Part shown: positions 8,949 to 31,294 of the stretch, piece after piece
Numbering within the stretch: the stretch's first letter is position 1
Layout of the letters: each line of letters opens with the position of its first letter
NCBI GenBank assembly: GCA_903891315.1
Contig: CAITEF010000318.1
Span: 1 to 33,174 of the forward strand
Origin: an uncultured Rhodospirillales bacterium
Lineage (GTDB): Bacteria > Pseudomonadota > Alphaproteobacteria > Acetobacterales > Acetobacteraceae
DNA length: 33,174 nucleotides
Direction of reading: 5' to 3'
Made by a program: the position numbers and the translations under genes
The notes under the pieces: model-generated
What the model saw: the letters and a program-made list of their open reading frames with translations, nothing else
Databases searched by the model: none
Told to the model about the DNA's origin: nothing

Positions 8949-8954
8949 CACCGT

Positions 8955-9005
8955 TTGACTCCCTGACTCGCCTATCTGATATACGCCTCCACCGGACCGG
9001 CGCAA
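8955..9005. promoter_or_regulatory. Putative face-to-face promoters of the second importer
   Basis: Minus strand: TTGCGC (9005-9000), 16 bases, TATATC (8983-8978), reading toward the binding protein with a short leader. Plus strand: TTGACT (8955-8960) with either GATATA at 17 bases or TATACG with an extended TG at 19 bases, reading toward the ATPase. Both would use the same central GATATA/TATATC block, so the two transcripts may be mutually exclusive. Inference from motif matches only. Confidence 0.38.
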
Positions 9006-9040
9006 TCGCCGCCCCCTTCGGCAAAGGTAGCGCGTCGCTC

Positions 9041-10099: not shown

Positions 10100-10106
10100 G
10101 GAACCG

Positions 10107-13762: not shown

Positions 13763-14212
13763 ATGAGCCGTCTCGTATTCGTCCTCAACGGTCCGAACCT
13801 GAATCTGCTCGGCAAGCGTCAGCCGCATATCTATGGCCACGAGACATTGGCCGATGTGGAAGCGCAATGCCGCGAATTGGCCGAGGAACTGAACCTCAAA
13901 ATCCGCTTCCACCAGTCAAACCGCGAATACGAGCTGATCGACTGGATCCACGAAGCGCGCGAAATCGCCGGGGGTATCGTGATGAACCCTGCCGCCTTCA
14001 CCCACACTTCGGTGGCGATTCTGGATGCGCTGAACACCTTCGACCATCCGGTGATCGAGGTGCATATCTCCAACGTCCACAAGCGGGAGGAGTTCCGTCA
14101 CCACTCTTTCGTCTCCAGCCGCGCCGATGGCGTGATCGCTGGTTTCGGCACGCAAGGCTATCTGCTCGGCCTCCGCCGGCTGGCCAAGCTGATCGACGAA
14201 AAGAAGGCGTGA
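13763..14212 (+). CDS. aroQ: Type II 3-dehydroquinate dehydratase
   Basis: 149 residues, standard for the small dodecameric type II enzyme that interconverts 3-dehydroquinate and 3-dehydroshikimate. The active-site set is complete: Arg19 and Tyr24 in GKRQPHIYG, Asn75 in [10 protein letters not shown], His81, His101 in EVHISN, and Arg112 in REEFRHHS. The usual REP of the lid loop is RQP here. The ATG at 13763 is preferred to an upstream TTG because a GGGAGTG ribosome site lies seven bases before it. The next gene begins 7 bases after the stop and encodes a quinate/shikimate dehydrogenase. The pair can therefore serve quinate or shikimate breakdown as well as aromatic amino-acid synthesis. Confidence 0.96.
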
Positions 14213-14219
14213 GAAAGTG

Positions 14220-15071
14220 ATGAAGACAACGACGCTGGTCGGCCTGATTGGGGCCGATATTCAAGGCTCCGCTGGGCCGGAACTGCATATGACGGAAGGG
14301 CAGGCGCAGGGCCTGTGGTACGTCTATCGCCTCGTCGATCTGACCAAGCTGGGGCTGACGCCTGACGCATTGCCGGATCTGCTGAAAGCCGCCGAGACCA
14401 TGGGTTTCACCGGCCTGGGCATCACGCATCCCTGCAAACAGGCGGTGATCCCCTATCTGACCGAGCTGTCCGATGACGCCCGCGCGCTGGGGGCGGTCAA
14501 CACCGTGGTGCTGCGCGATGGCAAGCGGATCGGCCACAACACCGACTGGTCCGGCTATGCCGAGGGCTTTCGCCGCAATATGGGTGACGTGAAGCGGGAT
14601 CGCGTGGTGCAACTCGGTGCCGGCGGCGCGGGAGCGGCGGTGGCGCATGCCGGGCTGACGCTCGGCTTTGGCGAACTGACGCTGTTTGACACCGACCTGA
14701 ACCGCGCCGCCGCCGTCGCCGACCGGCTGAATTCTCATTTCGGCCCAGGCCGCGCGGTGGTCGGCACCGATCTCGCCGCAGCCGTCGCCGCTGCCGATGG
14801 TCTGGTCAACTGCACCCCAATCGGCATGGACGCCCATCCCGGCGTGCCGCTGCCGGTTGAGATGTTGCGGGCTGATCTGTGGGTGTCGGACGTGATCTAC
14901 TTCCCACGAGAGACCGAATTGCTGCGTCACGCGCGCGAGTTGGGTGCCCGCACCGATAACGGTGTGGGGATGAACATCTATCAGGCGGCGGCCCAGTTCC
15001 GGCTGTTCAGCGGCAGCGAGCCTGACGTGGAGCGGATGGCCCAGAGTTTCGCGCGGATTCGCCCTCTTTGA
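14220..15071 (+). CDS. Quinate/shikimate dehydrogenase (AroE family, NAD-type features)
   Basis: 283 residues from ATG 14220; a GTG directly before it is an alternative. AroE-family features are the substrate-binding LIGADIQGSAGPELH start, catalytic Lys73 in GITHPCK, Asp109 in HNTDW, the nucleotide-binding GAGGAG (133-138), and the C-terminal NGVGMNIYQAA. Two details favour the catabolic, QsuD-like branch over biosynthetic NADP-dependent AroE. First, the IQ-S motif and THPCK replace the usual S-x-S and T-x-P-x-K forms. Second, the second beta strand ends in FDTDLNRA with Asp157, an acidic residue that normally selects NAD over NADP; biosynthetic AroE has NRT. It is co-directional with aroQ and almost certainly co-transcribed. 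I leave the symbol blank because aroE versus qsuD depends on cofactor. Confidence 0.9.
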   Translation: MKTTTLVGLIGADIQGSAGPELHMTEGQAQGLWYVYRLVDLTKLGLTPDALPDLLKAAETMGFTGLGITHPCKQAVIPYLTELSDDARALGAVNTVVLRDGKRIGHNTDWSGYAEGFRRNMGDVKRDRVVQLGAGGAGAAVAHAGLTLGFGELTLFDTDLNRAAAVADRLNSHFGPGRAVVGTDLAAAVAAADGLVNCTPIGMDAHPGVPLPVEMLRADLWVSDVIYFPRETELLRHARELGARTDNGVGMNIYQAAAQFRLFSGSEPDVERMAQSFARIRPL

Positions 15072-15181
15072 TCCGAAATAACGAGCCGCTGGCGACGGCG
15101 CATGATAGGCTGAAGACGCTCAATGTGAGCGAGGCGGTCAATCAAGCCGCAGCTTCTGGAACGACGGTGCGGATCGACTGA

Positions 15182-15201
15182 TCGCCGCCCCCACGCGGCG
15201 A
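15182..15201. terminator. GC-rich hairpin between convergent genes
   Basis: TCGCCGC-CCCCAC-GCGGCGA gives a perfect 7-bp stem with a six-base loop, in the 167-base gap between the dehydrogenase stop and the cytochrome stop. There is no U-run after it on either strand, so it is not a classical terminator, but it could slow or protect transcript ends. Nothing else is evident in 15072-15238 apart from a 4-bp stem at 15227-15238. Confidence 0.35.
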
Positions 15202-15238
15202 ATAGGGGCACCTCCAACTGACGCGCCGCCTGCGGGCG

Positions 15239-16513
15239 TTAGCGCATCTTCAACACGACGATATTGTCACTCGAAGGCTGCGTGCTCTTGCGCAATGCGG
15301 CGACTTCTTGCGGCGATACCGCGCCCGCTTTGTTGCCCCAGGCACCGCGGATGAAGCTGACAACCTCTGCAATCTGCCGGTCTTTCAACTGCTCTCGGAA
15401 TTGCGGCATGCGGTAGGCGTCGGGGCGTCCCTTGGCGACGAGAGGCCAGGAGCCGTTCAGCACGATGTTGATCAGCGAGGCCGGATCCTTGTCGAGAACG
15501 GTGGGGTTTCCAGCCAAAGGCGGGACGTAAGGCGGGGCGGCGGCACCATTCGCGCGGTGGCAGGTCTGGCAGGCGCTGACATAGAGGGCGGCACCTGCTG
15601 TGTCGGTCTTGCCGCTCAGCAGGGCTTGGGCGGTGGATGTGTCCTCCACCCAGGCGGTCTCGGCCTCGGTGGCTGGCAGCGAGGCGAGAAAGGCGGCGAT
15701 GGCGGCGAGGTCGCTGTCGGTCAGATAGGGGGTGGAGTTGTTGATCACGTCCCCCATCGAGCCATAGGCGACCGCGTGGCGGTTGTGGCCAGTCTTGAGG
15801 AATTCAGCGATCTCGCCCTGCGACCAGCTTCCCAGGCCGGTGGCCTGATTGGCGCGCAGGCTGGGCGCATACCAATCGTCAAGATTGGCACCGGCGAGGA
15901 AGCTGGAATCACGGGCGTCAAGCGACTTTTCCTGCCAGGCGGTGCCGCGCGGGGAGTGACATGCGCCGCAATGGCCGAGACCCTCGACGAGATAGGCGCC
16001 ACGGTTCCACTGCGCGTCCTTGCTGGGATCGGGGGTAAAGCCGGGCGAGGGGGTATAGACCACGTTCCACACTGCCAACGGCCAGCGGGGGCTGAGAAAG
16101 GGCGGGATCTCGTTCGCCCGATTGGCCTGCCGCACCGCCGGGACGTCGTGCATGAAATAGTCGTAGAGATCGGCGATGTCGGACCCGGTCAGCTTGGCAT
16201 AGGAGGGGTAGGGCATCGCTGGGTAAAGCCGATGGCCGTCGCGGGCGATCCCCCGGCGGATCGAGCGGTCGAAATCCTCCAGCGTGTAGCTTCCGATGCC
16301 GGTCTCGGGATCAGGAGTGATGTTGGTGGTGTAGAGTGTGCCGACGGGGCTTGCCATTTTCAGCCCGCCAGCGAAGGCGCGACCGCCAGGGACGGAGTGG
16401 CAGGCCACGCAATCCCCGGCGCGGGCGAGGTATTCGCCCTTTTCGTTGGCCATGGCTCCGGCGACGAAGCTGAAGCCCGCAAGCAGGGCTGCGGCCAGGA
16501 TCAGGCGCTTCAT
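15239..16513 (-). CDS. Triheme cytochrome c subunit of molybdenum hydroxylase
   Basis: 424 residues. A Sec signal peptide (MKRLILAAALLAGFSFVAGA) leads into three cytochrome c domains with heme motifs CVACH (35-39), CGACH (182-186) and CQTCH (315-319). This is the layout of the triheme subunits of acetic-acid-bacterial alcohol/aldehyde dehydrogenases and of the cytochrome portion of nicotinate dehydrogenase NicB. The mature protein is periplasmic and should carry electrons from the molybdopterin subunit to ubiquinone or a terminal oxidase. It is the last gene of a three-gene leftward operon, 26 bases after the molybdopterin subunit. A second-half truncation of the membrane anchor cannot be judged by eye. 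Confidence 0.93.
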   Translation of the reverse strand: MKRLILAAALLAGFSFVAGAMANEKGEYLARAGDCVACHSVPGGRAFAGGLKMASPVGTLYTTNITPDPETGIGSYTLEDFDRSIRRGIARDGHRLYPAMPYPSYAKLTGSDIADLYDYFMHDVPAVRQANRANEIPPFLSPRWPLAVWNVVYTPSPGFTPDPSKDAQWNRGAYLVEGLGHCGACHSPRGTAWQEKSLDARDSSFLAGANLDDWYAPSLRANQATGLGSWSQGEIAEFLKTGHNRHAVAYGSMGDVINNSTPYLTDSDLAAIAAFLASLPATEAETAWVEDTSTAQALLSGKTDTAGAALYVSACQTCHRANGAAAPPYVPPLAGNPTVLDKDPASLINIVLNGSWPLVAKGRPDAYRMPQFREQLKDRQIAEVVSFIRGAWGNKAGAVSPQEVAALRKSTQPSSDNIVVLKMR

Positions 16514-16539
16514 GGGCGTTCTCTCACTTCCGGCGCAGG

Positions 16540-18738
16540 TCAGGCCGAGGCCGACAGGTCGAGATCCTTGATCGGCAGACTGCGAATACGCTTGCCGGTG
16601 GCGGCGAAGATTGCATTGGCCAGCGCGGGCAAGGCAGGCGGCAAAGCAGGCTCTCCGAGGCCGGTCGGTGGGAAGTCGGTGACGCGGAAATGAACCTCCA
16701 CCGGCGGCGATTGGCGCATCCGCAGCGGCAGCACGGTGTCGAAATTGCCCTGCACGATCTTCCCGCCCTGCAGATGCAGGCCGTGGCCGAGTGCGGTGCC
16801 GATGCCGTCCAGCGCCGCACCCTGGGCCTGGTTCTCGGCGTTCAACGGGTTGATGATCTGGCTGCCGATGTCACCAGCGACCCAGATCTTGTCGACGGTG
16901 ATCTCACCCGCCGCGTTGACGGTGGCCTGCACCACTTCGGCGAAATAGCCGAGATGGCTGTAATAATAGGCCAGCCCCATGCCGGTGCCTTTCGGCAGAC
17001 TCTTTTTGCCCCAGCCGGATTTCTCGGCGGCCAGTTCAATCACGCCGCGCATCCGCCCGGTGTGGAAGCCCGGTCCGGCGCGCGGTCCGGGCGGGTCGGG
17101 CAGCAGGCGGGGTTCGCCGAGCAGGCCGAGTGCGAATTGTAGAGGATCGACGCCCGCCTTGTGCGCCAACTCGTCGAGGAAGGATTGGAAAGCAAAGCCC
17201 AGCCCGTTCGAGCGCGGCGCGCGCAGCGGGCCGGTGGGGGCACGCAGCGGGATCATCGACATGCCGTAATCGAGATGTTCGACCAGCCGCGCGGGGAATT
17301 CGGCGGCTGTCATCTCGGCCGAGGCGGCAACCTCACCGTTCTGGCTGAAGGTGACGAAATGGTCGGCGAACGCGATCAGCTTGCCATTGCCATCGAGGCC
17401 AGCCTTGAAGAAATGGAAGCCAGCGGGGCGATAGAAATCGTGCCGCATGTCGTCTTCACGGGTCCAGAGCAGCTTGACCGGTGCGCCCACGACTTTCGAA
17501 ATCCAGGCTGCCTCGACCATATAATCATTGCTCAGCCGCCGCCCGAAGCCACCACCGGCGCGGACCATGTGGACCTTGATCGCCGATTCCGGGATGCCCA
17601 GCGTGTTGGAGACCAGTTTCGAGCCGGGAGCGGGGTTCTGCGTGGGTGCCCAGATCTCGACTTTGCCGTCTTGGACATGCGCCGTGCAGTTCTGCGGCTC
17701 CAGGTTGATGTGCGACAGGAAAGGGTAGGAATACGCCGCCTCGACCACGGTTTTTGCCTTGGCTAACCCGGCATTCACATCGCCGTCACGCCGCAGAGCC
17801 ATGGCGGGCTTGCCGCTGGCCAGCCGGGAGGCAGTGGCGGCGAAATCGGCGGTGCTTTGGCCGGTGATGTCGCCTTCATCCCACACGATATCGAGTTGCT
17901 GGCGCGCCCGGTTGGCCTGCCACCAGCTGTCGGCGACCACGGCGACACCGTCGAGCAGGCCGCGCAGATCATTGCCGCCCTTGACCTCGAAGGCGGCGCG
18001 CACGCCGGGGAGCGCGCGTATCACGTCAACATTGGAGCTGACCAGCTTGCCGCCATGCACGTCGCATTTCTGGAAGACGGCGTAGAGCATGCCCGGCACG
18101 CTGACATCGATGCCGAACATCGGCTGGCCGGTGACGATGCGCGGGACTTCGATGTTGCGCGTCGGCTGGCCTATGATCCGGAAATTCTTAGGGTCTTTGA
18201 GTTTGAGCGTGTTGAGATCGGGCACTGGCTGAGCCGCCGCCTTGGTCGCCAATGCGCCATAGCCGAGGCTGCGCCCGCTGGGGTTGTGCAGCACGAGACC
18301 GGTCAAGGTCTCGCACTCCGATACCGGAACGCCCCATTCGGCGGCGGCGGCGGCGATCATCATGTGACGACCGGCGGCACCGACGCGGCGCATCGGCAGC
18401 CAATTCACCGGAGTGGCGGTGCTGCCGCCTGCGGTCTGCGCGGGATATCGGGAGTCGAGATCGGCCTGATCGATCTGCACCCGGTCCCACGAGACATCGA
18501 GTTCCTCGGCGATCAACATCGGCAGCATGATCTTCACGCCTTGGCCGATCTCCGGGTTCTTGGCCGTGATTGTCACCAGACCATCTGGGGCGATGCGGAC
18601 ATAAGCGTTGAGCGTGGCGGCGTCGCGGCCCGCCTTGCCCAGGCTTGCCGCCTTGGCGGGGGCCTTGATGGTGGCGGTGAGCAGCAACCCGCCGCCTGCG
18701 GCGAGGCTGGCCTTAAGGAAGTTCCGACGTGCCAACAT
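16540..18738 (-). CDS. Molybdopterin-binding subunit, xanthine dehydrogenase family (IorB/aldehyde dehydrogenase type), Tat-exported
   Basis: 732 residues from ATG 18738, seven bases after a GGAGGG ribosome site. A TTG two codons earlier sits too close to that site. The N-terminus MLARRNFLKASLAAGGGLLL is a clear Tat signal, so the folded molybdenum enzyme works in the periplasm. The family is IorB-like, with the molybdopterin domains in one chain. Visible motifs are GGGFGRRLSNDY for cofactor binding and PPTGLGEPALPP near the C-terminus with the catalytic Glu. With the 2Fe-2S subunit upstream and the triheme cytochrome downstream it forms a three-subunit oxidase of an aldehyde or N-heterocycle, handing electrons to the respiratory chain and not to FAD. 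No FAD subunit and no XdhC-type chaperone gene is present here. Confidence 0.94.
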   Translation of the reverse strand: MLARRNFLKASLAAGGGLLLTATIKAPAKAASLGKAGRDAATLNAYVRIAPDGLVTITAKNPEIGQGVKIMLPMLIAEELDVSWDRVQIDQADLDSRYPAQTAGGSTATPVNWLPMRRVGAAGRHMMIAAAAAEWGVPVSECETLTGLVLHNPSGRSLGYGALATKAAAQPVPDLNTLKLKDPKNFRIIGQPTRNIEVPRIVTGQPMFGIDVSVPGMLYAVFQKCDVHGGKLVSSNVDVIRALPGVRAAFEVKGGNDLRGLLDGVAVVADSWWQANRARQQLDIVWDEGDITGQSTADFAATASRLASGKPAMALRRDGDVNAGLAKAKTVVEAAYSYPFLSHINLEPQNCTAHVQDGKVEIWAPTQNPAPGSKLVSNTLGIPESAIKVHMVRAGGGFGRRLSNDYMVEAAWISKVVGAPVKLLWTREDDMRHDFYRPAGFHFFKAGLDGNGKLIAFADHFVTFSQNGEVAASAEMTAAEFPARLVEHLDYGMSMIPLRAPTGPLRAPRSNGLGFAFQSFLDELAHKAGVDPLQFALGLLGEPRLLPDPPGPRAGPGFHTGRMRGVIELAAEKSGWGKKSLPKGTGMGLAYYYSHLGYFAEVVQATVNAAGEITVDKIWVAGDIGSQIINPLNAENQAQGAALDGIGTALGHGLHLQGGKIVQGNFDTVLPLRMRQSPPVEVHFRVTDFPPTGLGEPALPPALPALANAIFAATGKRIRSLPIKDLDLSASA

Positions 18739-18740
18739 GC

Positions 18741-19205
18741 TCAAGCCCTCCCTGCTTCGGCGGCGTGTTTGATCGCGGCTCGGATGCGGGTGTAGGTGGC
18801 GCAGCGGCAGAGATTGCCGTTCATCGCCTCATTGATGTCGTGATCGGTCGGGTTCGGCGTACGGGTCAGCAGGGCCGTGGCGGACATGATCTGCCCGGCC
18901 TGGCAATAGCCGCATTGCGGCACGTCGAGTTCGATCCAGGCTTCTTGCACCAACTTGCCGAGGCGGCTCTCACCGACGGCTTCGATCGTGGTGATGCGGC
19001 CATTGCCGACCGAGGCGATGGGAGTTTGGCAGGCGCGGATCGGGTGGCCATCCATATGGACGGTGCAGGCCCCGCATTGCGCGGCACCGCAGCCGAATTT
19101 GGTGCCCTTGAGGTCAACCACGTCGCGCAGCACCCAGAGCAGGGGTGTCTCGCCGTCGATATCGACGCTTTGCTGAGCGCCGTTGATCTCGATTGTGTAG
19201 TGCAT
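18741..19205 (-). CDS. 2Fe-2S subunit of molybdenum hydroxylase
   Basis: 154 residues from the ATG at 19205; the 53-codon upstream extension of the frame is not family-like. The N-terminal plant-type ferredoxin domain has KFGCGAAQCGACTVHMDG with a further Cys in RACQTP. The C-terminal helical domain binds a second cluster through CGYCQAGQIM and NLCRCATYTRI. This is the complete two-cluster signature of xanthine-oxidase small subunits (IorA, NicA, AldG type). It lacks an export signal and would travel with the Tat-exported large subunit. Its stop lies two bases before the large-subunit ATG, so translation is coupled. It is the first gene of the leftward operon. Confidence 0.95.
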   Translation of the reverse strand: MHYTIEINGAQQSVDIDGETPLLWVLRDVVDLKGTKFGCGAAQCGACTVHMDGHPIRACQTPIASVGNGRITTIEAVGESRLGKLVQEAWIELDVPQCGYCQAGQIMSATALLTRTPNPTDHDINEAMNGNLCRCATYTRIRAAIKHAAEAGRA

Positions 19206-19257
19206 AGGAAGTGCAGCCCCCTCGCCCGTTCTTTTTTTCATATTTGGTGGCTGCGGC

Positions 19258-19286
19258 AAATTAGGCAAGCTCAATGGAGCGTTCAA
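19258..19286 (-). promoter_or_regulatory. Putative promoter for molybdenum hydroxylase operon
   Basis: Minus strand TTGAAC (19286-19281), exactly 17 bases, TAATTT (19263-19258). Transcription would start near 19250, about 45 bases before the 2Fe-2S subunit ATG. Motif match only; supported by position and optimal spacing. Confidence 0.42.
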
Positions 19287-19353
19287 CGCTGTACCCAACG
19301 TTGGTCCACACCTGCGGGAACAAGTGAATTTCGCAGCGAGGTACAACTCCACC

Positions 19354-19383
19354 CATCCCTTCAATGTAGGGTTTGAAGGGATG
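19354..19383. repeat. Perfect 11-bp inverted repeat, likely operator
   Basis: CATCCCTTCAA, eight-base spacer TGTAGGGT, TTGAAGGGATG. All 11 pairs match. It lies in the 290-base divergent region between the molybdenum hydroxylase operon and the MHS transporter operon, just upstream of the rightward promoter candidate (19410-19437). This position suits an activator binding around -75 of the transporter operon. As RNA it could also form an 11-bp hairpin, but it has no U-run. The rest of 19206-19495 holds the two promoter candidates and a ribosome site (GGGGAGG, 19482-19488). Confidence 0.6.
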
Positions 19384-19409
19384 CGGGCATGGCGGCGGAA
19401 AATCGAGCC

Positions 19410-19437
19410 TTCACCGCGACGTGGAAACCGCTACACT
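19410..19437 (+). promoter_or_regulatory. Putative promoter for MHS transporter operon
   Basis: TTCACC (19410-19415), 16 bases, TACACT (19432-19437); four of six matches in each box. Start near 19444, with about 50 bases of leader before the ATG at 19496. Confidence 0.38.
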
Positions 19438-19495
19438 TGCGCAAAAAACCGGGTCGACACGGTCGGACCCGACATCCACTGCGGGGAGGCGGATT

Positions 19496-20794
19496 ATGTC
19501 ACAATCTAAGGACATTCGGAATCTGGGATTGGCGTCGCTGGGCGCGGTGCTCGAATATTTCGATTTCCAGGTTTACGTGTTTGTGGCGGCGGCGCTCAGC
19601 GTGGCGTTCTTCCCACCCGGAGCGTCAACCTGGGTCAAACAGGTGCAGGTGTTCGGCATTTATGCAGTGGGATATCTGGTCCGCCCGGTGGCGGGGATCA
19701 TCATCGCCCATTACGCCGACAAGATCGGTCGCAAGAAGCTGTTCATCTTCACCGTTTTGCTGATGTCGATCCCAACCTTCGCGATGGGATTGTTGCCGAC
19801 CTACGACCAGATTGGCTGGCTGGCACCCGCCTTGCTGCTGATCCTGCGAATCGCCCAGGGGTGTGCAGTGGGTGGTGAGTTGCCGGGGGCTGCGGTGTTT
19901 GTCACCGAGCATGCCAAGCCGAACCGAATCGGGGTCTCTGGCGCTGTGTTCTCCGGGGTGACGAATTGCGGCCTGCTGCTGGGCGCGTTCGCTGCGGCGA
20001 TGTCCAAGCATGTGGCCGATCTGGACCCGTCGCTAGCGCAGTTGGCGTGGCGGCTGCCATTCCTCCTCGGCGGTGCGTTCGGGTTGGTGGCGGCCTATCT
20101 GCGCCGCAGCCTGGAAGAGACGCCGATGTTTGAGGAGATCAAGGCGTCGAAGAAGATTTCCAAGCAGTTGCCGCTTGGTGTGATTCTACGCGAGCATCGG
20201 ATGGAATGCGTGTTCGTGCTCGGGCTGGTGTTTGCTTTCTCGTCCACCAGTGGCGTGTATTTCCAATATCTGCCGAGTTATCTGATCGGCCAGCTGCATT
20301 TCAAAGCTGATTTGGTGTTCAACGCCAATGTGTTTGGGGTGACGGCGTTTGTCTGTGGAATGCCGGTTTGGGGGTGGCTGCGCGACAAATTCGGTCTTCA
20401 GCGGGTTCTGGTAACGGCCACGCTGCTGAACATGTGCATCAGCGTGTGGTTCTTCAACTTTCTGCCCACGCTGGCGAGTGACGATGTGCGGCTGATCTAC
20501 GCCATTATTGTTGTGGGATTGTTCGCTAGCTGCGTGCACGGGATCATTCCGAGCACGATCGCAACCCTGTTCCCCACTCCGATCCGTCAGAGCGGCTACT
20601 CGTTGCCCTATGTGGTGGGAACTGCGGTCTTCACTGGTCTCACCCCGTTGGCTTTGGCGTGGTTGGTGGCGGATTACGGGCTGTTCGCGCCGATGTATCA
20701 ATACCTTCTGGGCTGCGCGATCGCGCTGGTGATCGCCGGCACGTTCCGCTTCATGCCGCAATATCTCGGCACGCAGACCACGGCTGGGGAGTAA
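19496..20794 (+). CDS. MFS transporter, metabolite:H+ symporter (MHS) family
   Basis: 432 residues from the ATG at 19496, which follows a GGGGAGG ribosome site; the longer frame to 19373 is non-coding leader. Twelve membrane spans are expected. MHS-family features are the first-helix LGAVLEYFDFQVYVFVAAA, the loop 2-3 ADKIGRKKLFIF signature, and LRIAQGCAVGGELPGAAVFV in helix 4. Known members take up shikimate (ShiA), 2-oxoglutarate (KgtP), citrate or proline/betaine. The neighbouring aroQ/shikimate-type dehydrogenase and aromatic-catabolic genes make an organic or hydroaromatic acid the likely substrate, but this is inference. It heads a three-gene rightward run. Confidence 0.92.
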   Translation: MSQSKDIRNLGLASLGAVLEYFDFQVYVFVAAALSVAFFPPGASTWVKQVQVFGIYAVGYLVRPVAGIIIAHYADKIGRKKLFIFTVLLMSIPTFAMGLLPTYDQIGWLAPALLLILRIAQGCAVGGELPGAAVFVTEHAKPNRIGVSGAVFSGVTNCGLLLGAFAAAMSKHVADLDPSLAQLAWRLPFLLGGAFGLVAAYLRRSLEETPMFEEIKASKKISKQLPLGVILREHRMECVFVLGLVFAFSSTSGVYFQYLPSYLIGQLHFKADLVFNANVFGVTAFVCGMPVWGWLRDKFGLQRVLVTATLLNMCISVWFFNFLPTLASDDVRLIYAIIVVGLFASCVHGIIPSTIATLFPTPIRQSGYSLPYVVGTAVFTGLTPLALAWLVADYGLFAPMYQYLLGCAIALVIAGTFRFMPQYLGTQTTAGE

Positions 20795-20802
20795 TCGTCG
20801 CC

Positions 20803-21405
20803 ATGGAACTTCAGGAAATGCTAGACCGCGCCGAGATCACCCGCGTGGTCAATGATTGGGGCCTGTGCCGCGACACCGGGCGATGGGACGCGCTGCGCGC
20901 GCTCTACGCGCCGGGGGGCACGATGCGGACGACATGGTGCGATTGCAGTGCGGAGGAGTTCGTCGACCGCTCGATCCAATCGGCTGCGCGCGGATCGTTT
21001 TCGGGGCATTTCATCGGGGCATCGACGATCCGGGTGAACCACAAGCGGGCGATTGCCGAGACCCGGATGGTGCTGATGCTTCGCGCCGAGATTGAGGGCG
21101 TGAAGGTGGATGTCGCCTGTCAGGGGCGGTTCTACGACCAGTTCGTCAAGACCGAGGCGGGATGGCGAATCCTGCATCGCGTGCCGGTCTATGACAAAGA
21201 TCGGCTGGATCCGGTGGAGCCGGGTCGGACGGTCCATCTCGATCCGGAGCGTTTGGCGCGGTTTGCCGAGGGGTATCGGCATATCGCCCATATTCAATCC
21301 CTCGGCGGCATGACCCTCACCCCAGGTCTTCCCACCCGCAACAGCCCGGAAGAGGCGAAATTGCTGGCCGATGGTGATGCTTGGCTCAACGGAGATCACT
21401 CATGA
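20803..21405 (+). CDS. SnoaL/NTF2-like domain protein
   Basis: 200 residues. The first 140 residues fit the SnoaL-like (NTF2-fold) pattern: a helical start MELQEMLDRAEITRVVNDWG, then RDTGRWDALRALYAPGG, and later beta strands ending in GRFYDQFVKTEAGWRILHRV. The Asp/Arg/Trp pattern (D-x-G-R-W-D, G-W-R-I-L-H-R) is characteristic. The last 50 residues are an extra tail. Such proteins include small cyclases, isomerases, dehydratases and ring-hydroxylating dioxygenase beta-like proteins, so the reaction is unknown. The start is 8 bases after the transporter stop, and its TGA overlaps the amidohydrolase ATG (ATGA). No signal peptide. Confidence 0.85.
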   Translation: MELQEMLDRAEITRVVNDWGLCRDTGRWDALRALYAPGGTMRTTWCDCSAEEFVDRSIQSAARGSFSGHFIGASTIRVNHKRAIAETRMVLMLRAEIEGVKVDVACQGRFYDQFVKTEAGWRILHRVPVYDKDRLDPVEPGRTVHLDPERLARFAEGYRHIAHIQSLGGMTLTPGLPTRNSPEEAKLLADGDAWLNGDHS

Positions 21406-22433
21406 GATTGGGCCAACCCTGTGGCTGCCTATCGCGCCGCGGCTTCATTTCGAGCGCCATCGCGGCGGGCGTCGCTGCCACCACCAAATCCACGCTGGCG
21501 GCACAGCCAGCGTTTCGGGTGGATGTGCATCACCATCTCTATCCGCCGGAATTGCTGACGCGGGCGGCCAAGGTGATGCCGCTGCTGCCGCTGATCTCGG
21601 GTTGGCGGGTGGAGCATTCTCTCGAAGAGATGGACGCGGCCGGGATCAAGACTTCGATGCTGTCGCTCGCGATGCCGGGCGTTGCCTTCGAGACGCCCGA
21701 GCAGGCGCGGCTTCTGGCGCGGCTGACCAACGAATACGGTGCGGGGTTGGTGCGCGAGCACCAGGGCCGATTCGGCTTCTTTGCCATTCCGCCCTTGCCA
21801 GATGTGGAAGGCAGTCTGCGCGAAATCGAATATGCGATGGATGTGCTCAAGGCGGACGGCATCGGCGTGTTCACCAATTATCCCGGCAATATCTGGCTGG
21901 GCGACCCGAAATTCGCGCCGGTTTATGAGGAGCTGAACAGGCGTAAGGCGGTGCTTTACACCCATCCCAACACGGCTGATTGTTGCACGAATCTTACGCC
22001 GGGGATTGCCGACACGGTGGTGGAATACGGCACCTCCACCACGCGGTCGATTGCAACGATGGTCTTTGGTGGGTTTGCCAAGAAATACCCCGACATCAAG
22101 GTGATCTTCAGCCATGCAGGCGGCACGATGCCGTATCTGATCGAACGGTTCGAGTTTCAGGCGAAATCGGGGAAATATCCGAAAGAGATGCCGGAAGGGG
22201 TGCATCCCGCTATCGAGCATTTCTTCTACGACACCGCCCAGGCCTCAAACCCCGAGGCGTTGGGCACGTTGATGAAGCTGGTGCCGAGTTCGCAGATCGT
22301 CTTCGGCACCGATTATCCGTATCGCACCTGTGTGGAGCACGTGACCAACCTGCGTGCGATGAATTTGGCGGCGGCGGATTTGCGGGCGATTGAGCGGGAC
22401 AACGCGATTCGGATGCTGCGAGGAGTCGGTTGA
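21402..22433 (+). CDS. Amidohydrolase family protein (ACMSD/decarboxylase-like), Tat-exported
   Basis: 343 residues from the ATG that overlaps the previous stop. The N-terminus LSRRGFISSAIAAGVAAT is a good twin-arginine signal. The mature part is a metal-dependent TIM barrel of the amidohydrolase_2 class: metal-binding HxH in DVHHHLYP (His43, His45), a His in LYTHPN, a His in FSHAGG, and the catalytic/metal Asp in FGTDYPY. The class contains nonoxidative decarboxylases of aromatic acids (ACMSD, gamma-resorcylate, 5-carboxyvanillate, 6-methylsalicylate) as well as hydrolases. The ring-cleavage dioxygenase next door makes a decarboxylase or hydrolase in aromatic breakdown plausible. Periplasmic placement is unusual for this group. 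It is convergent with the dioxygenase gene, with a 7-base gap. Confidence 0.9.
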   Translation: MRLGQPCGCLSRRGFISSAIAAGVAATTKSTLAAQPAFRVDVHHHLYPPELLTRAAKVMPLLPLISGWRVEHSLEEMDAAGIKTSMLSLAMPGVAFETPEQARLLARLTNEYGAGLVREHQGRFGFFAIPPLPDVEGSLREIEYAMDVLKADGIGVFTNYPGNIWLGDPKFAPVYEELNRRKAVLYTHPNTADCCTNLTPGIADTVVEYGTSTTRSIATMVFGGFAKKYPDIKVIFSHAGGTMPYLIERFEFQAKSGKYPKEMPEGVHPAIEHFFYDTAQASNPEALGTLMKLVPSSQIVFGTDYPYRTCVEHVTNLRAMNLAAADLRAIERDNAIRMLRGVG

Positions 22434-22440
22434 GCTCAGC

Positions 22441-23445
22441 CTACTCGGCCGCCCGTTTTTGCGCATCGAACCAGGGGCATACTCCTTCGCTGAGCGCGTA
22501 ATTGCCCGGCATGACCTGGACCGGCTGACGCAGGCCGTTGCGCCCGCATTGCAGCCGCATGTCGCGGAATTTCGCCTGCATGTCCGGTGTCATGAATGGG
22601 CGGTCATGGCCCCACATGCTGGGGCCGACATTGGTTTCGTGCGGCACCCACGTTGCCGGATCGATGGTGCGACCACCCCAGCCATATTCAATAAAAAAGC
22701 CAGAGGGCGTGTGAACATAGAATGACGTCATCCAATCATTGGTGTGTCGTCCCAGCGTGTAGGCGATGCGACCCGATTCGAGTTGGGCGAGATCGTAGCC
22801 TTGGCCGACATCGTCGAGGCTGTACAATTCGACCATGAAATGATGAAAGCCGCGCCTGCCAGTGCCGATCATTGCGAAACTGTGGTGGCGACCATTGATG
22901 TGGAAGAAATACAGGCCGTAAGGCTCCAGCCCGTAATCGCTCATACCGAAGCCCAACACGTCACGGTAGAACGGCATCAGCAATTCGATGTTCTCGACTT
23001 GCAGCACGACATGGCCCATGCCGAGCGCGCCGGTGCGGAAGCCCGAAATTGGGCGGCCCGGCACGAAGGGATCGCTGGCGATTTTTGGGCCGATGACGAT
23101 TTCGATTCGGTGGCCGGCTGGATCATGGAAGACGATCAGTTCCGCCACTTCGCGCTTGTCCGCCAACGCCCGGCTGCCGCGCGTAACCGCCAGACCCTCT
23201 GCCTCGATGCGTGCGGTGACGCGGTCGAGCGCCGCAATGTCGGCCGCCTCGAAGCCGAAATAGCCGATATCATCGCCCTCGCTGCTATCGATGATCAAAC
23301 GCTGCATCCGGTCATCCATCCGGAAACGCCGCAGATCGCCGGATGTCTCAACCTGTTGCATGCCGAGCAGATTGGTCGCCAACGCCGACCAATCGTCGAG
23401 CTTGGAGGATTGCAGACCGAGATAGGCCAGAGCGATGATGTCCAT
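22441..23445 (-). CDS. Extradiol ring-cleavage dioxygenase, two-domain VOC (BphC/HsaC-like)
   Basis: 334 residues from the ATG at 23445, behind an AAGGAG ribosome site. There are two vicinal-oxygen-chelate modules, with the catalytic site in the second. By comparison with BphC-type enzymes the iron ligands are His145 (GMGHVVLQV), His202 (FHHFMVE) and Glu253 (FFIEYGWGG). The second-sphere residues are also present: His187/His188 (GRHHSFAMI), His234 and Tyr243 (SFYVHTPSGF). The full set suggests an active Fe(II) (or Mn) dioxygenase that opens a catecholic ring next to its hydroxyls. The substrate is not predictable; candidates are substituted or bicyclic catechols. The frame is open 65 codons upstream of the ATG, but that part has no family similarity that I recognise. 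It is divergent from the AAHS transporter. Confidence 0.9.
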   Translation of the reverse strand: MDIIALAYLGLQSSKLDDWSALATNLLGMQQVETSGDLRRFRMDDRMQRLIIDSSEGDDIGYFGFEAADIAALDRVTARIEAEGLAVTRGSRALADKREVAELIVFHDPAGHRIEIVIGPKIASDPFVPGRPISGFRTGALGMGHVVLQVENIELLMPFYRDVLGFGMSDYGLEPYGLYFFHINGRHHSFAMIGTGRRGFHHFMVELYSLDDVGQGYDLAQLESGRIAYTLGRHTNDWMTSFYVHTPSGFFIEYGWGGRTIDPATWVPHETNVGPSMWGHDRPFMTPDMQAKFRDMRLQCGRNGLRQPVQVMPGNYALSEGVCPWFDAQKRAAE

Positions 23446-23633
23446 GATGGGCTCCTTGCGCCCAAAGATCGTATGAGTGTCGCCCAGTTGCGTCCACACC
23501 CAGGCGAGACCCACACGAAGCTGCGGCTCGTTTGACAGAATCGTGACGCTGTTGCGTTCGGTGTTCCCGCCGACGGCATCGACCAGCACCGTCTTCACAT
23601 TCGGCACCTGCAGGCGCGAAGCCGTGCCGCGCA

Positions 23634-23665
23634 AGTTCATTTTTGGAACGACTTGATCTCAAGTC
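23634..23665 (-). promoter_or_regulatory. Palindromic operator with overlapping promoter candidate
   Basis: GACTTGA-TC-TCAAGTC (23650-23665) is a perfect 7+7 inverted repeat with a two-base centre. On the minus strand its right half contains TTGAGA (23662-23657), followed after 17 bases by TGAACT (23639-23634), a plausible promoter toward the dioxygenase with an approximately 180-base leader. An operator over a -35 box suits repression. The remaining 23446-23775 interval shows no other clear signal apart from a weak GAGG ribosome site before 23776. Confidence 0.45.
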
Positions 23666-23775
23666 CGCATAAGCTGGCCTGAATGATCTGGCTCGCGCGT
23701 GGTTGGCAACTTGGGGGCTTGCCCGCGTGTCGCCGCGTTGTCCAAGATGTTGAAACACATTGAGGATGGTTTCCA

Positions 23776-25002
23776 ATGACAATAGCCAGCCCGCCAGCGG
23801 GTGCTGCCACCACCCAATCGGGGCGAGTCGGTCTGATTTCATCCGTTCTCTGCTTTCTGGTGATTCTGCTCGACGGCTACGACACCGGCGTCGTCTCCTA
23901 CACCGCGCCAACGCTTGCGCGGGAATGGCACGTGACCGCCGCCGCGTTCACTCCTGCCTTTGTTGCCACCAGCCTGGGCGCTGTGATCGGCTACATCTCC
24001 TGCGGGAAGTTGGCCGCGCGTTTCGGGCATCGGATGCTGGTCACCGCCAGTGTCGCCTTCTTCGGCCTGATGTCGCTGGTCTCGCTGCTGGCAACCGACA
24101 TGACATCCTTGACGGTGCTGCGCTTCATCACCGCCCTCGGCTTGGGCGGCGCGATCCCGACCGCCATCGCACTTGCCGCTGCCCATGCGTCGACGCATCA
24201 GCGGGAACGGACGGCGTCTATCGTGACGTTGGGCATCGTGTTTGGCACCACAATCGGCGGCTATATCTCGGTGCCGATTTTGCAGAAATGGGGCTGGCAG
24301 GGGCCGTTTGTGGTCGGTGGGATTGTGCCGTTGCTCTGCGTGCCGGTGCTGTATCACTGGCTGCCGGATGCGCCGGTGCGCGGTGGGTCTGGTTCGGCGG
24401 GCGCGCTGTTTGCCAAGGGTCTGGCGGGATCGACGATCCTGCTTTGGTCGATGGCGCTGCTCTCCTTCATGCAGAGCTATTCGTTCACCTATTGGCTGCC
24501 GCTGCTGCTGACCAGCTATGGGTTTGACCGTGCGACGGCGGCACTTGGCAACACCTATACCGGGATGGGCACCATCGCGGGCGTGATCGTGATGTCCTTG
24601 GTAGTCGGCCGGGTTGGGTCGGCGCGGTATTTGTCGGGGGCTTTTGCCTGCGGGGCGGGGCTGGTTCTGTTGTTCGCGTGGGGCCACGTGTCGAACGATT
24701 ACGTGCCGCCGCTGCTGGTGCTGTGCGGGTCGGTGCTCGGAATCGGCGGCGTGGGGCAGGCGGCGATTGCCTCAATGCTCTATCCGGCTGCTTTGCGGAC
24801 GAACGGGGTTGGCTGGTCGTCGGCGATGGGGCGGCTCGGCTCGATTGTGGGGCCTGGGATTGCCGGGTTCTTCCTGCATCTGAACTGGCCTGCCGGTGAC
24901 ATCATCGCCCTTGCTGCCGTGCCCGCCTTGGGGGCCTCAATGGCTGCGATTGCGATCCATCTACGCCTGCGTGGCAAGGCTTCCCGGGAGATTTCGGCAT
25001 GA
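23776..25002 (+). CDS. MFS transporter, aromatic acid:H+ symporter (AAHS) family
   Basis: 408 residues, about 12 membrane spans. The first helix VILLDGYDTGVVSYTAPTLA carries the D-G-Y-D-T motif diagnostic of AAHS proteins such as PcaK, BenK and MhpT, whose Asp residues are needed for aromatic acid uptake. Loop 2-3 has GKLAARFGHRMLV, and helix 4 has LRFITALGLGGAIPTAIAL, also typical. It probably imports a (hydroxy)aromatic carboxylate by proton symport. The carboxylesterase start overlaps its stop by four bases (ATGA, 24999-25002), so the two are co-translated. The gene is divergent from the ring-cleavage dioxygenase, which matches an uptake-plus-degradation unit. Confidence 0.93.
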   Translation: MTIASPPAGAATTQSGRVGLISSVLCFLVILLDGYDTGVVSYTAPTLAREWHVTAAAFTPAFVATSLGAVIGYISCGKLAARFGHRMLVTASVAFFGLMSLVSLLATDMTSLTVLRFITALGLGGAIPTAIALAAAHASTHQRERTASIVTLGIVFGTTIGGYISVPILQKWGWQGPFVVGGIVPLLCVPVLYHWLPDAPVRGGSGSAGALFAKGLAGSTILLWSMALLSFMQSYSFTYWLPLLLTSYGFDRATAALGNTYTGMGTIAGVIVMSLVVGRVGSARYLSGAFACGAGLVLLFAWGHVSNDYVPPLLVLCGSVLGIGGVGQAAIASMLYPAALRTNGVGWSSAMGRLGSIVGPGIAGFFLHLNWPAGDIIALAAVPALGASMAAIAIHLRLRGKASREISA

Positions 25003-26477
25003 GTGACTCGGTTCAAATTCGCACCGGACTGGGCGAGATTCTCGGCGAACAAGCAGATGGCGTGATCCGCTTCCGCATCGTGCCTTATGCGCGCCCGCCA
25101 GTCGGTGATCTGCGATTTGCCCCGCCGAAGCCGCCCCTGCCTTGGTCCGGCGTGCTGGACGCCCGAGCTGTCGGCCCGATTGCGCCGCAACCGCAGTCCC
25201 GCCTGCGAATGGCGATGGGGGATTTCCAGCGTGAGCAGAGCGAGGATTGCCTCACACTCGCCATCAGCACTCCCGCAATCACCGGCAAGCGTCCGGTGGT
25301 GGTGTGGCTGCATGGCGGGGCATATCTGAGCGGCGCGGGGTCGCTCGACTGGTATGATGGTGGGCCACTCGCCCGTGCGGGCGATGTGGTGGTCGTCGGC
25401 GTCAATTACCGCCTCGGCCCGCTCGGCTTCCTGCATTATCCCGGTCTGTCGGACGGGATGATGGGCCTGCACGATATGGTCGCAGCCCTGCAATTTGTCC
25501 GCGACCACATCGCCTCCTTCGGCGGCGATCCGGACTGCGTCACGTTGATGGGCCAGTCAGCGGGTGGCGGCGCGATCCTGCGGCTGATCGATTTCGACAA
25601 CACCGAGGGGCTGTTCCACCGCGTCATCGTGCAAAGTGGCCCACCGCGTCCTGGCCCCACTGCGGCGGAGGCGTCGCGGCGCACGCGGCGGTATATGGAA
25701 ATCCTCGGCATCGACGCCGACGCACCGGATGCAGGCGAACAATTGCGCCGTGCTCCGCTCGACCAGTTGATCACCCAGCAGATGACGGTGGCGCGGGAGT
25801 TGTCGCGCTTCGCCGCCATCGAGCCCGCCTTCCCGCCCTGTTTCGACAATTACGCGCCCGACTATGCCGACCGTGTCGCCGCCGGGATCGTCTCGCGCGG
25901 GATTGAACTGATGATCGGCACCACCAGCGAGGAGATGAACGCCTTCTTCCTCGCTGACCCGTCGATGACCAGTCCCGACCCGGCCGCCGTGGCGGAACGT
26001 TTCGAGACGCTGGGTGGTTCAGCCGGGACTTTGGAGGCTTATCGCCGCCATCATCCGGGCGGCAGCCTGCGCGATCTGCTCGGCGATCTGATCACCGATC
26101 ACCGCTTCGTGCTGCCTTCGTTGGATTTGGCGCAACGCGTGCGGGCGCACGGTGGGAGCGCGTTCGTCTACGAGTTCAATTGGTCTGGCCCAAATTCAAA
26201 ATGGAAGGCCTGCCACTGCATCGAACTCGCCTTTTGCTTCGGCACGCTGCCCGCGTGGAATGCGCCGATGCTCGAAGGGCTTGATCCCGGCATGTATGCC
26301 GAATTGTCGGCCACGATGATGGCGGCCTGGAGTGGATTTGCGCATCGTGGCGATCCGTCCTTGCCCGATCTGGCTTGGCCGCAATATGGCGCGGGGCGGG
26401 AGACGATGTGTTTCGGCAACGCGGTGCGGGTGGTGGGCGACCAGGCCGGCCTTGCCTGGAAGCGCGCGGGTCAATAA
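24999..26477 (+). CDS. Type B carboxylesterase
   Basis: 492 residues. Family hallmarks are the second signature SEDCLTL (81-87), the oxyanion-hole HGGAYLSGAG from residue 105, and the nucleophile elbow GQSAGG with Ser187. An acidic residue in GTTSEEMNAFF is the probable triad Glu, and the CHCIELAFCFG segment has the catalytic His. FGGDPDCVTLMGQSAGG is the classical type B block. No signal peptide is seen, so it is presumably cytoplasmic and acts on an ester brought in by the coupled AAHS transporter. Aromatic or hydroxycinnamate esters are reasonable candidates, without direct evidence. It ends before a strong bidirectional terminator. Confidence 0.93.
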   Translation: MSDSVQIRTGLGEILGEQADGVIRFRIVPYARPPVGDLRFAPPKPPLPWSGVLDARAVGPIAPQPQSRLRMAMGDFQREQSEDCLTLAISTPAITGKRPVVVWLHGGAYLSGAGSLDWYDGGPLARAGDVVVVGVNYRLGPLGFLHYPGLSDGMMGLHDMVAALQFVRDHIASFGGDPDCVTLMGQSAGGGAILRLIDFDNTEGLFHRVIVQSGPPRPGPTAAEASRRTRRYMEILGIDADAPDAGEQLRRAPLDQLITQQMTVARELSRFAAIEPAFPPCFDNYAPDYADRVAAGIVSRGIELMIGTTSEEMNAFFLADPSMTSPDPAAVAERFETLGGSAGTLEAYRRHHPGGSLRDLLGDLITDHRFVLPSLDLAQRVRAHGGSAFVYEFNWSGPNSKWKACHCIELAFCFGTLPAWNAPMLEGLDPGMYAELSATMMAAWSGFAHRGDPSLPDLAWPQYGAGRETMCFGNAVRVVGDQAGLAWKRAGQ

Positions 26478-26551: not shown

Positions 26552-27607
26552 TCAGCGCAGCGAGGCGTTCAGTTTGGCCAGGGCGGCTGAACCTGGCACC
26601 AGGGCTGCATCGTCCATCGCGTTGAGCGGCGTGCTGGATGTGCCGAGATGGTCGTGCATGTCTTGGCTGTCCGAGTCGACATAGAGCAGGCCGGTGACGA
26701 TCTCGCCCTTGGATTGGTGCTTCTGCACGTATTCCATCGCGGCGATCTTGTCGTTTACGTCATATTCGCTGTTGATCTTGCGCAGCTTGATCAGCGACCC
26801 GTCATGCTGGCGCACCACTTCGACCGAGCCTGGCGAATAATCCACCGTGATCTCTTGGCGGCCGAGGATCACGTCGAGGAAGTTCACCGCCTCGTTGTGC
26901 TCACGAACGTAGTCATAGCTCTTGGTGGAGCCTTCATGGTTGTTGAAGGTCACGCAGGGGCTGATCACGTCGATGAAGGCCGGGCCTTTATGAGCGAGGG
27001 CTGCTTTGATCAGCGGAACCAACTGCGTCTTGTCGCCAGAGAACGAGCGACCGACGAAGCTGGCACCAAGCAGCATCGCCATCGAGATCATGTCGATCGG
27101 TGCATCCTGGTTGGTCGCTCCTTTCTTATTCTTCGCCCCACGGTCGGCGGTGGCGGAGAACTGGCCCTTGGTGAGACCGTAAACGCCGTTGTTCTCGACG
27201 ATATAGGTCATGTTCACCCCGCGCCGCATGGCGTGGGCGAACTGGCCGAGGCCGATGGAGGCCGAATCACCGTCTCCGGAGACGCCGAGATAGATCAGGT
27301 CGCGATTGGCAGCGGCTGCCCCGGTGAGCACAGAGGGCATGCGGCCATGCACCGAGTTGAAGCCGTGCGAGGCACCGAGGAAATAGGTCGGAGTCTTGGA
27401 GGAGCAGCCAATGCCGGACAGTTTGGCGATGCGATGTGGCGGCAAAGCGAGTTCGTAGCAGGCATGGATGATCGCCGCCGAGATCGAGTCATGGCCGCAC
27501 CCGGCGCAAAGCGTCGAGATCGAGCCTTCATAATCGCGGCGGGTGTAGCCGAGATCGTTCTTCGGCAATTCCGGGTGATGCAGTTTCGGCTTCGGGAGGT
27601 AGGTCAT
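26552..27607 (-). CDS. korB: 2-oxoacid:ferredoxin oxidoreductase beta subunit
   Basis: 351 residues. This is the thiamine-pyrophosphate subunit of the two-subunit KorAB class. Seen are CAGCGHD (34-40), with a further Cys in GIGCSS, both probably ligands of the 4Fe-4S cluster, and the TPP/Mg motif GDGD (111-114) through ENN (138-140) followed by GVYGLTKGQ. With KorA it would oxidise 2-oxoglutarate (or another 2-oxoacid) to the acyl-CoA and reduce ferredoxin, reversibly. It overlaps korA by four bases (ATGA, 27604-27607) and is the last gene of the operon before the shared terminator. The substrate is not proven; length and the split from a fused gamma-alpha chain favour the 2-oxoglutarate type. 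Confidence 0.94.
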   Translation of the reverse strand: MTYLPKPKLHHPELPKNDLGYTRRDYEGSISTLCAGCGHDSISAAIIHACYELALPPHRIAKLSGIGCSSKTPTYFLGASHGFNSVHGRMPSVLTGAAAANRDLIYLGVSGDGDSASIGLGQFAHAMRRGVNMTYIVENNGVYGLTKGQFSATADRGAKNKKGATNQDAPIDMISMAMLLGASFVGRSFSGDKTQLVPLIKAALAHKGPAFIDVISPCVTFNNHEGSTKSYDYVREHNEAVNFLDVILGRQEITVDYSPGSVEVVRQHDGSLIKLRKINSEYDVNDKIAAMEYVQKHQSKGEIVTGLLYVDSDSQDMHDHLGTSSTPLNAMDDAALVPGSAALAKLNASLR

Positions 27608-31256: not shown

Positions 31257-31294
31257 GTTCTTACTCCCACGCCTCTTGTCGTTTCGCGTTTCGT

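What the first reader, a model, noticed from the sequence alone, without database searches (positions are those of the whole stretch)
13763..26477. Candidate uncharacterised catabolic cluster for plant-type aromatic or hydroaromatic esters
Eleven genes in four units combine functions rarely seen as one block. They are AroQ plus an NAD-type quinate/shikimate dehydrogenase, a periplasmic triheme molybdenum hydroxylase, an MHS transporter, a SnoaL-like protein, a Tat-exported ACMSD-class amidohydrolase, an extradiol dioxygenase, an AAHS transporter and a type B carboxylesterase. An ester such as a hydroxycinnamoyl-quinate would supply substrates for both the quinate branch and the ring-cleavage branch. 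The families are seen in the sequence; the joint pathway and the example substrate are inference.
Basis: partly seen in the sequence, partly recalled or inferred. Interest (0 to 1): 0.62.

Follow-up and report, generated by a model that had tools for sequence, protein, structure and literature searches.

The report
Mosaic island of aromatic-catabolism modules
A bacterial DNA stretch thought to be one pathway for breaking down plant esters is better read as several separately travelling breakdown modules side by side, one of which contains a bacterial look-alike of a yeast enzyme that removes carbon dioxide from gallic acid without any cofactor.

Summary
The eleven genes are real and correctly named, in five strand runs rather than four. 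They do not form one conserved block. In relatives the units mostly stand apart: AroQ plus quinate/shikimate-type dehydrogenase looks like a quinate module; the molybdenum enzyme is AldFGH-like and in one of three sister genomes again faces an AAHS permease and esterase; the five closest dioxygenase relatives whose surroundings were fetched stand next to an FAH-type hydrolase gene; and MHS permease, SnoaL protein and amidohydrolase recur together in a sister species, Paraburkholderia and Cupriavidus, there near glyoxalase-fold dioxygenase-like genes. The most interesting gene is the 'SnoaL-like' protein: its only convincing solved-structure matches are the cofactor-free gallate decarboxylases AGDC1 and PPP2; all eight active-site residues named for AGDC1 are kept, but the potassium site is lost. 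Wider bacterial relatives include some beside intradiol dioxygenase and maleylacetate reductase genes. Best reading: an aromatic-catabolism island whose core imports a phenolic acid, decarboxylates it without cofactor and cleaves the ring. Decarboxylase activity and substrate are inferred, not shown.

The parts
13763..14212 (+). AroQ, type II 3-dehydroquinate dehydratase (unit A)
   Evidence: TIGR01088 over cut-off; a second AroQ lies on contig C161; an 88% identical AroQ in G018 lies near a TIM-barrel/HPPD-domain gene and AroE
14220..15071 (+). Quinate/shikimate dehydrogenase, probably NAD-dependent (unit A)
   Evidence: best solved match quinate/shikimate dehydrogenase 3jyo, E 3.3e-72, Asp kept at the cofactor-binding turn (its meaning for NAD is recalled); another AroE over the TIGR00507 cut-off on C252
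15239..16513 (-). Triheme cytochrome c subunit (unit B)
   Evidence: three CxxCH; matches 8gy2_B and 8gy3_A
16540..18738 (-). Molybdopterin large subunit with Tat-like signal (unit B)
   Evidence: near whole-length match to 8gy3_C, large subunit of aldehyde dehydrogenase, E 3.6e-84
18741..19205 (-). 2Fe-2S small subunit (unit B)
   Evidence: Fer2 and Fer2_2; same gene order in L143, L144, L145
19496..20794 (+). MHS-family permease (unit C)
   Evidence: best NCBIfam model TIGR00883, below its cut-off; 45% identical permease precedes SnoaL in Paraburkholderia largidicola
20803..21405 (+). SnoaL-like protein, proposed cofactor-free hydroxybenzoate decarboxylase (unit C)
   Evidence: 6w54 gallate decarboxylase E 8.6e-14; W35 R39 D40 T60 W61 H86 Y150 Q192 kept, E88 lost
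21402..22433 (+). Amidohydrolase of the ACMSD / 5-carboxyvanillate decarboxylase class with Tat-like signal (unit C)
   Evidence: PF04909; HHH at 43-45, H188, H238 and GTDYP (metal-binding role recalled); solved matches
22441..23445 (-). BphC-type extradiol dioxygenase (unit D)
   Evidence: 1han E 1.9e-63; H145, H202 and E253 lie in the stretches aligned with it (identity of the metal ligands recalled)
23776..25002 (+). AAHS-family permease (unit E)
   Evidence: TIGR00895 and MhpT models, below cut-offs; 66% identical gene beside unit B in G109
24999..26477 (+). Type B carboxylesterase (unit E)
   Evidence: PF00135; 8wdm and p-nitrobenzyl esterase among the best matches (60 of 152 shown); GQSAG at 185

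Best explanation
The 12.7 kb is an aromatic-catabolism island put together from several separable modules. Supported by comparison: unit A resembles quinate/shikimate catabolic sets; unit B is an AldFGH-like periplasmic molybdenum dehydrogenase, in one sister facing a pair like unit E (permease plus esterase); unit C (MHS permease, SnoaL protein, amidohydrolase) is a cassette that recurs in alpha- and betaproteobacteria near meta-cleavage-type genes; unit D is an extradiol dioxygenase whose closest relatives examined are tied to an FAH-type hydrolase. Inferred for the core C+D: the permease imports a phenolic acid; the SnoaL enzyme uses a His-Asp dyad, a Trp clamp and an Arg to remove the carboxyl group without cofactor, as AGDC1 does; the resulting di- or trihydroxybenzene is opened by the dioxygenase. 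The exported amidohydrolase performs a metal-dependent decarboxylation or hydrolysis in the periplasm, and unit B may supply acids by oxidising phenolic aldehydes there. Whether units A, B and E feed the core is not shown.
For: Separation of units: five probes in a family draw of 150 genomes, tabulated; no SnoaL or amidohydrolase relative near 19 dioxygenase loci. Unit A: in G018 AroE, a TIM-barrel/HPPD-domain gene and an AroQ of 88%; protocatechuate 3,4-dioxygenase-type genes beside AroE in L266 and L273 and pcaGHCD in Skermanella. Units B and E: L143, 8gy3. Unit C: L080, Paraburkholderia, Cupriavidus P-10, ATGA overlap. SnoaL; no dehydratase among its solved matches at E up to 1. Published roles of the residues: PMC7862292, passages.
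Against: The potassium ligand E88, whose change to Ala kills AGDC1 (PMC7862292 passages), is Ile here and is kept in none of 58 bacterial rows. In the window SnoaL's own 14-row tree group Q192 is kept only by the window protein, and W35 and T60 vary, so activity or substrate may have drifted. No FAH-type hydrolase or ring hydroxylase was found among the window ORFs scanned; candidates are on other contigs. The dioxygenase-like genes beside unit C that were compared share only about 24-29% identity with this one over partial stretches. The SnoaL structure model was too poor to use (mean pLDDT 51).
Confidence: 0.5

Rival explanations
1. One reading: an ester such as a hydroxycinnamoyl-quinate is imported and cleaved by the esterase, quinate goes through AroQ and the dehydrogenase, the acid through the dioxygenase.
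For: All genes lie within 12.7 kb of one contig; unit A looks like quinate/shikimate catabolism. Loose pairings occur elsewhere: an esterase of 36% about 6 kb from the dioxygenase in L070, an AAHS-like permease of 24% next to it in L055.
Against: The probed units are not conserved together; the esterase's best solved matches are general carboxylesterases; relatives of unit A stand elsewhere, some with protocatechuate-type genes.
Confidence: 0.07
2. The SnoaL protein is not a decarboxylase but a dehydratase, isomerase or tautomerase in an aromatic or cyclitol pathway; AGDC1, LinA and scytalone dehydratase share the His-Asp dyad (PMC7862292 passages).
For: E88 lost in 58 of 58 bacterial rows; W35, T60 and Q192 vary in its tree group; a G018 paralogue weakly matches the scytalone dehydratase model, below cut-off; many wider relatives stand beside genes with no evident aromatic role.
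Against: Its convincing solved relatives are the two decarboxylases, with no dehydratase at E up to 1; Trp clamp and substrate Arg are kept; several relatives stand beside ring-cleavage-type genes.
Confidence: 0.3
3. Units B, C and D form one linear route: periplasmic oxidation of a phenolic aldehyde to an acid, import, cofactor-free decarboxylation to a catechol or pyrogallol, extradiol cleavage.
For: B, C and D are neighbours here; B is AldFGH-like; AGDC1 accepts protocatechuate and gallate (PMC7862292 passages). Distant molybdenum-hydroxylase genes (24-39%) lie near the dioxygenase in L061, L063 and L067 and near SnoaL in L169 and L171.
Against: The three 81-82% orthologues of the Mo subunit in sister genomes have no C or D gene in the stretches read.
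Confidence: 0.15

Closest known systems
AGDC1 / PPP2 cofactor-independent gallate/protocatechuate decarboxylases (6w54, 7jmr)
   Same: sequence match over most of the protein; all eight named active-site residues kept
   Different: bacterial; potassium-site residues replaced (87 F, 88 I, 124 A, 126 Q); distant match (E 8.6e-14); activity untested
AldFGH-type membrane-bound aldehyde dehydrogenase (8gy3; the name AldFGH is recalled)
   Same: three subunits: 2Fe-2S, Mo, triheme cytochrome c; near whole-length match of the Mo subunit
   Different: cytochrome subunit scores higher against quinone-dependent alcohol dehydrogenase cytochrome 8gy2_B than against 8gy3_A; substrate unknown
Quinate/shikimate catabolic module (NAD quinate/shikimate dehydrogenase, AroQ, QsuB-like dehydratase; QsuB recalled)
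   Same: AroQ next to a dehydrogenase of the 3jyo quinate/shikimate type; sister species has a fuller set
   Different: no 3-dehydroshikimate dehydratase found among the window ORFs scanned
BphC-type extradiol dioxygenases
   Same: 1han is the best solved match
   Different: about 50 residues beyond the matched part at the C-terminus; below the TIGR03213 cut-off
ACMSD / 5-carboxyvanillate decarboxylase amidohydrolases
   Same: class matches and motifs in place
   Different: Tat-like export signal; best solved match is 2f6k, named only 'metal-dependent hydrolase'

Membership tests
AGDC1/PPP2 decarboxylases | His86-Asp40 dyad | tested here: met
AGDC1/PPP2 decarboxylases | W35/W61 clamp and R39, T60, Y150, Q192 | tested here: met
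   (met by the window protein; its tree-group mates vary at W35, T60 and Q192)
AGDC1/PPP2 decarboxylases | potassium site (E88, with R87, D124, D126) | tested here: not met
   I, F, A, Q at positions 88, 87, 124, 126
AGDC1/PPP2 decarboxylases | non-oxidative decarboxylation of gallate or protocatechuate | not testable with these tools
   needs an enzyme assay
AldFGH-type aldehyde dehydrogenase | three-subunit make-up with triheme cytochrome and exported Mo subunit | tested here: met
AldFGH-type aldehyde dehydrogenase | aldehyde as substrate | not testable with these tools
   needs an assay
Quinate/shikimate catabolism | quinate-type dehydrogenase besides another AroE in the genome | tested here: met
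Quinate/shikimate catabolism | 3-dehydroshikimate dehydratase | tested here: inconclusive
   none among the window ORFs scanned (a few ORFs not scanned); the rest of the own genome was not searched for it; a candidate stands with unit A in G018
Extradiol dioxygenase, BphC type | two His and one Glu metal ligands | tested here: met
   His, His and Glu kept in the alignment to 1han (that these are the ligands is recalled)

The most novel reading that the evidence does not exclude
A widespread, unrecognised bacterial class of cofactor-free hydroxybenzoate decarboxylases exists, related to yeast AGDC1 but without its potassium switch. It has split into two branches, one feeding extradiol cleavage (dioxygenase plus FAH-type hydrolase) and one feeding intradiol cleavage (hydroxyquinol-type dioxygenase plus maleylacetate reductase); the window carries the first kind.
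Probability: 0.35. Interest if true: 0.6.

Novelty: new variant of a known kind. Interest (0 to 1): 0.38.

Why it matters
The AGDC1 structure paper says that in the homologues from lactic bacteria proposed earlier the catalytic side chains, above all the His, seem to be absent, so that they are probably not the same type (PMC7862292 passages). The window protein and 41 of the 44 bacterial rows outside its own tree group keep all eight named active-site residues, though not the potassium site. If they decarboxylate, they give bacteria a cofactor-free way from hydroxybenzoates to phenols, useful for lignin and tannin conversion, and they give a function to genes that plasmid records annotate only as 'nuclear transport factor 2 family protein'.

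Tried and rejected
A joint ester pathway was tested by neighbourhoods and dropped. The genome-contig scan with a two-row SnoaL alignment was too narrow: 29 stretches matched a pattern, 1 encoded a relative, on a contig of the same length as G018's C80. Structure prediction of SnoaL from two sequences gave mean pLDDT 51, so no fold search was run. Relatives of the Mo subunit on plasmids (2 of 299 records looked at) and of the amidohydrolase showed no second copy of the window's arrangement; in Rhodococcus fascians the amidohydrolase relative does follow a VOC gene and an MhpA-type hydroxylase. Literature, seen as search listings with starts of abstracts: 20 of 33 papers listed; 13 of 13; 3 of 3; 15 of 47; 8 of 8; 10 of 41; 25 of 101. 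No listed title or abstract start described a bacterial AGDC1-type enzyme, but the listings were capped and only PMC7862292 (passages), PMC3556828 (passages) and PMC11069340 (outline and two sections) were opened. The isoflavone cluster of PMC11069340 has a glyoxalase-type protein and an FAD monooxygenase; no SnoaL gene is mentioned in the two sections read.
Full report
What is there. The window is one complete contig (C318) of an assembly in 697 contigs. A genus-mate, G018, has a contig of the same length and content as one titled 'MAG: Rhodospirillales bacterium'. They lie in five strand runs: AroQ-AroE (+), MoS-MoL-CytC (-), MHS-SnoaL-AmH (+), dioxygenase (-), AAHS-esterase (+). Inside runs the gaps are -4 to 26 bases (SnoaL-AmH being -4 with the ATG at 21402), between runs 7 to 330.

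Are they one block? Five genes were each searched in a draw of 150 genomes of the same family, own genome included: dioxygenase in 47 of 150, amidohydrolase in 27, SnoaL in 24, esterase in 10 at a strict limit of 1e-100, AroE in 33 at 1e-60. The handles coincide between calls. The two permeases, AroQ and the Mo genes were not searched in this draw. Leaving out the own genome, shared contigs are few: G018, amidohydrolase and SnoaL within 3 kb; G121, where dioxygenase, amidohydrolase and AroE share one contig of 5.4 Mb but lie at 4.52, 1.06 and 0.02 Mb; G036, SnoaL and dioxygenase about 519 kb apart; G014, AroE about 9 kb from an amidohydrolase of only 28% identity. Of 20 dioxygenase regions fetched, 19 were compared with the window proteins: none holds a SnoaL or amidohydrolase relative; distant Mo-hydroxylase genes (24-39%) lie in three (L061, L063, L067), an AAHS-like gene (24%) in L055 and an esterase (36%) in L070. 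Of 20 amidohydrolase regions, several of them short contigs, one (L080, G018) holds SnoaL.

Unit A. The dehydrogenase's best solved matches are quinate/shikimate dehydrogenase 3jyo and 2nlo. In G018 its relative lies with a 643-residue protein holding an AP_endonuc_2 and an HPPD-type domain (the make-up of QsuB-like 3-dehydroshikimate dehydratases, recalled) and with an AroQ 88% identical to this one. Of twelve AroE regions fetched (L266-L277; my gene calls missed AroE in L274), AroQ was seen within four genes of AroE in two (L267, L271); of 19 short AroE loci, two hold AroQ, one being the same place as L267. Protocatechuate 3,4-dioxygenase-type genes stand near AroE in L266 and L273, and pcaGHCD in Skermanella rosea; Azoarcus KH32C has none annotated in the stretch. 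Unit A thus looks like quinate/shikimate catabolism. The own genome has a second AroQ (C161) and further AroE-like genes on C252 and C646, with a weak match on C548.

Units B and E. The Mo subunit matches aldehyde dehydrogenase large subunit 8gy3_C over residues 3-730. Of 8 genus genomes, own included, 7 have a match; three others hold an 81-82% orthologue, all in the order MoS-MoL-CytC. In one of the three (G109, L143) the set faces an AAHS permease (66%) and an esterase (61%, matching only from residue 134), as in the window. Of six other esterase regions (L260-L265), in four the esterase stands beside genes that look like branched-chain-type ABC transporters by their N-termini (not scanned).

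Unit C. In G018 the MHS permease (in two frames) and SnoaL (56%) diverge from a gene that looks LysR-like and the amidohydrolase (49%), followed by a glyoxalase-fold gene, an FAH fragment, an AAHS-like permease, a second SnoaL and an FAD-binding hydroxylase-type gene. In Paraburkholderia largidicola: MHS, SnoaL, porin, hypothetical, amidohydrolase, beside genes annotated FAH family, VOC family, flavin reductase and acyl-CoA dehydrogenase family; two further Paraburkholderia records show the three matches in the same order and spacing. In Cupriavidus sp. P-10: acyl-CoA-dehydrogenase-type gene, a gene between, MHS, SnoaL, FAH, VOC, a BKACE-like gene, then on the other strand amidohydrolase, FAD hydroxylase, VOC and FAH. 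Paraburkholderia sp. D15 has a looser version. Unit C is thus a recurrent cassette near meta-cleavage-type genes. In the window the partner is the BphC-type dioxygenase. Its five fetched relatives of 58-66% (L055-L058, L068) all stand next to an FAH-type gene; none was labelled in the other 14 regions (output partly cut at L071); a 69% fragment in G002 and a 59% relative in G141 were not fetched. Of 68 plasmid records with a relative, five were looked at: four have an annotated FAH-family gene beside it, the Rhizobium one a gene annotated 5-oxopent-3-ene-1,2,5-tricarboxylate decarboxylase. No FAH gene was found among the window ORFs scanned; eight homologues lie elsewhere in the genome, of which two were looked at without a dioxygenase beside them, while contig C83 holds a VOC gene next to an MhpA-like gene.

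The SnoaL protein. At E up to 1 its solved matches are gallate decarboxylase 6w54 (8.6e-14), PPP2 7jmr (4.4e-13), 2rfr (0.024) and eight weaker ones (0.48-0.86). The eight active-site residues discussed for AGDC1 (PMC7862292 passages) are all kept; the four potassium-site residues are not. Across 60 aligned rows (55 different; two are AGDC1 and PPP2; two hits dropped, one short and one with a stop), R39, D40 and H86 are kept in all, E88 in none of 58 bacterial rows, R87 in three, W61 in all but two. A tree splits the rows 14 to 46 (support 100/98, with long-branch warnings). The 14 hold the window protein, both copies from G018's contig C80 and the Paraburkholderia and Cupriavidus proteins; within them only the window keeps Q192, and W35 and T60 vary. 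Six of these 14 rows besides the window come from loci with VOC and FAH genes or fragments of them (L080 twice, L121, L193, L194, L195). AGDC1 and PPP2 fall, on a very long branch, among the 46, which include the proteins beside maleylacetate reductase and/or an intradiol dioxygenase (L109/L159 as one place, L174, L175, L188, L190, L191, L192). Of 37 plasmid records with a SnoaL relative, five were looked at first; four have both of these genes and one, Bradyrhizobium, has neither. Caution: the reference proteins used to look for neighbours came from these same loci, many loci had only about 1.5 kb of flank, and many members within the family stand beside genes with no evident aromatic role, so the contrast is suggestive only. 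At class level 20 of 385 genomes, own included, had a match at E up to 1e-20.

Judgement. On paper it works like AGDC1, but it fails one tested feature (the potassium site), so it is not filed as a member.

Noticed in passing
L192 4499-10302 (Sinorhizobium meliloti Rm41 plasmid): AroQ, maleylacetate reductase, SnoaL, intradiol dioxygenase and a TIM-barrel-type gene sit together on the plasmid to which calystegine catabolism has been attributed (PMC3556828 passages).
   Followed up: partly
window 26552-31310: Genes for a 2-oxoacid:acceptor oxidoreductase (beta, fused gamma-alpha, and an FAD/Fe-S protein) directly beyond the esterase on the other strand.
   Followed up: no
window 2338-11798: ABC importer genes (two permeases, two ATPases and a solute-binding protein by Pfam, and a possible second binding protein at 7878-8948 that was not scanned) around an HflX-like GTPase gene.
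   Followed up: no
L150, L151, L153, L158: SnoaL-family genes with the same eight active-site residues near genes that, by their N-terminal sequence, look like an acid-sugar kinase and a class II aldolase, an unexpected context for an aromatic decarboxylase (neighbours not scanned).
   Followed up: no
L080 7206-8542: In sister genome G018 the MHS permease gene is split between two frames, by decay or assembly error.
   Followed up: no
G000 contig C83 6245-9072 (L223): A glyoxalase-fold gene 54% identical to the one in the G018 SnoaL cluster stands next to an MhpA-like hydroxylase gene in the window's own genome, a possible partner set for unit C.
   Followed up: partly
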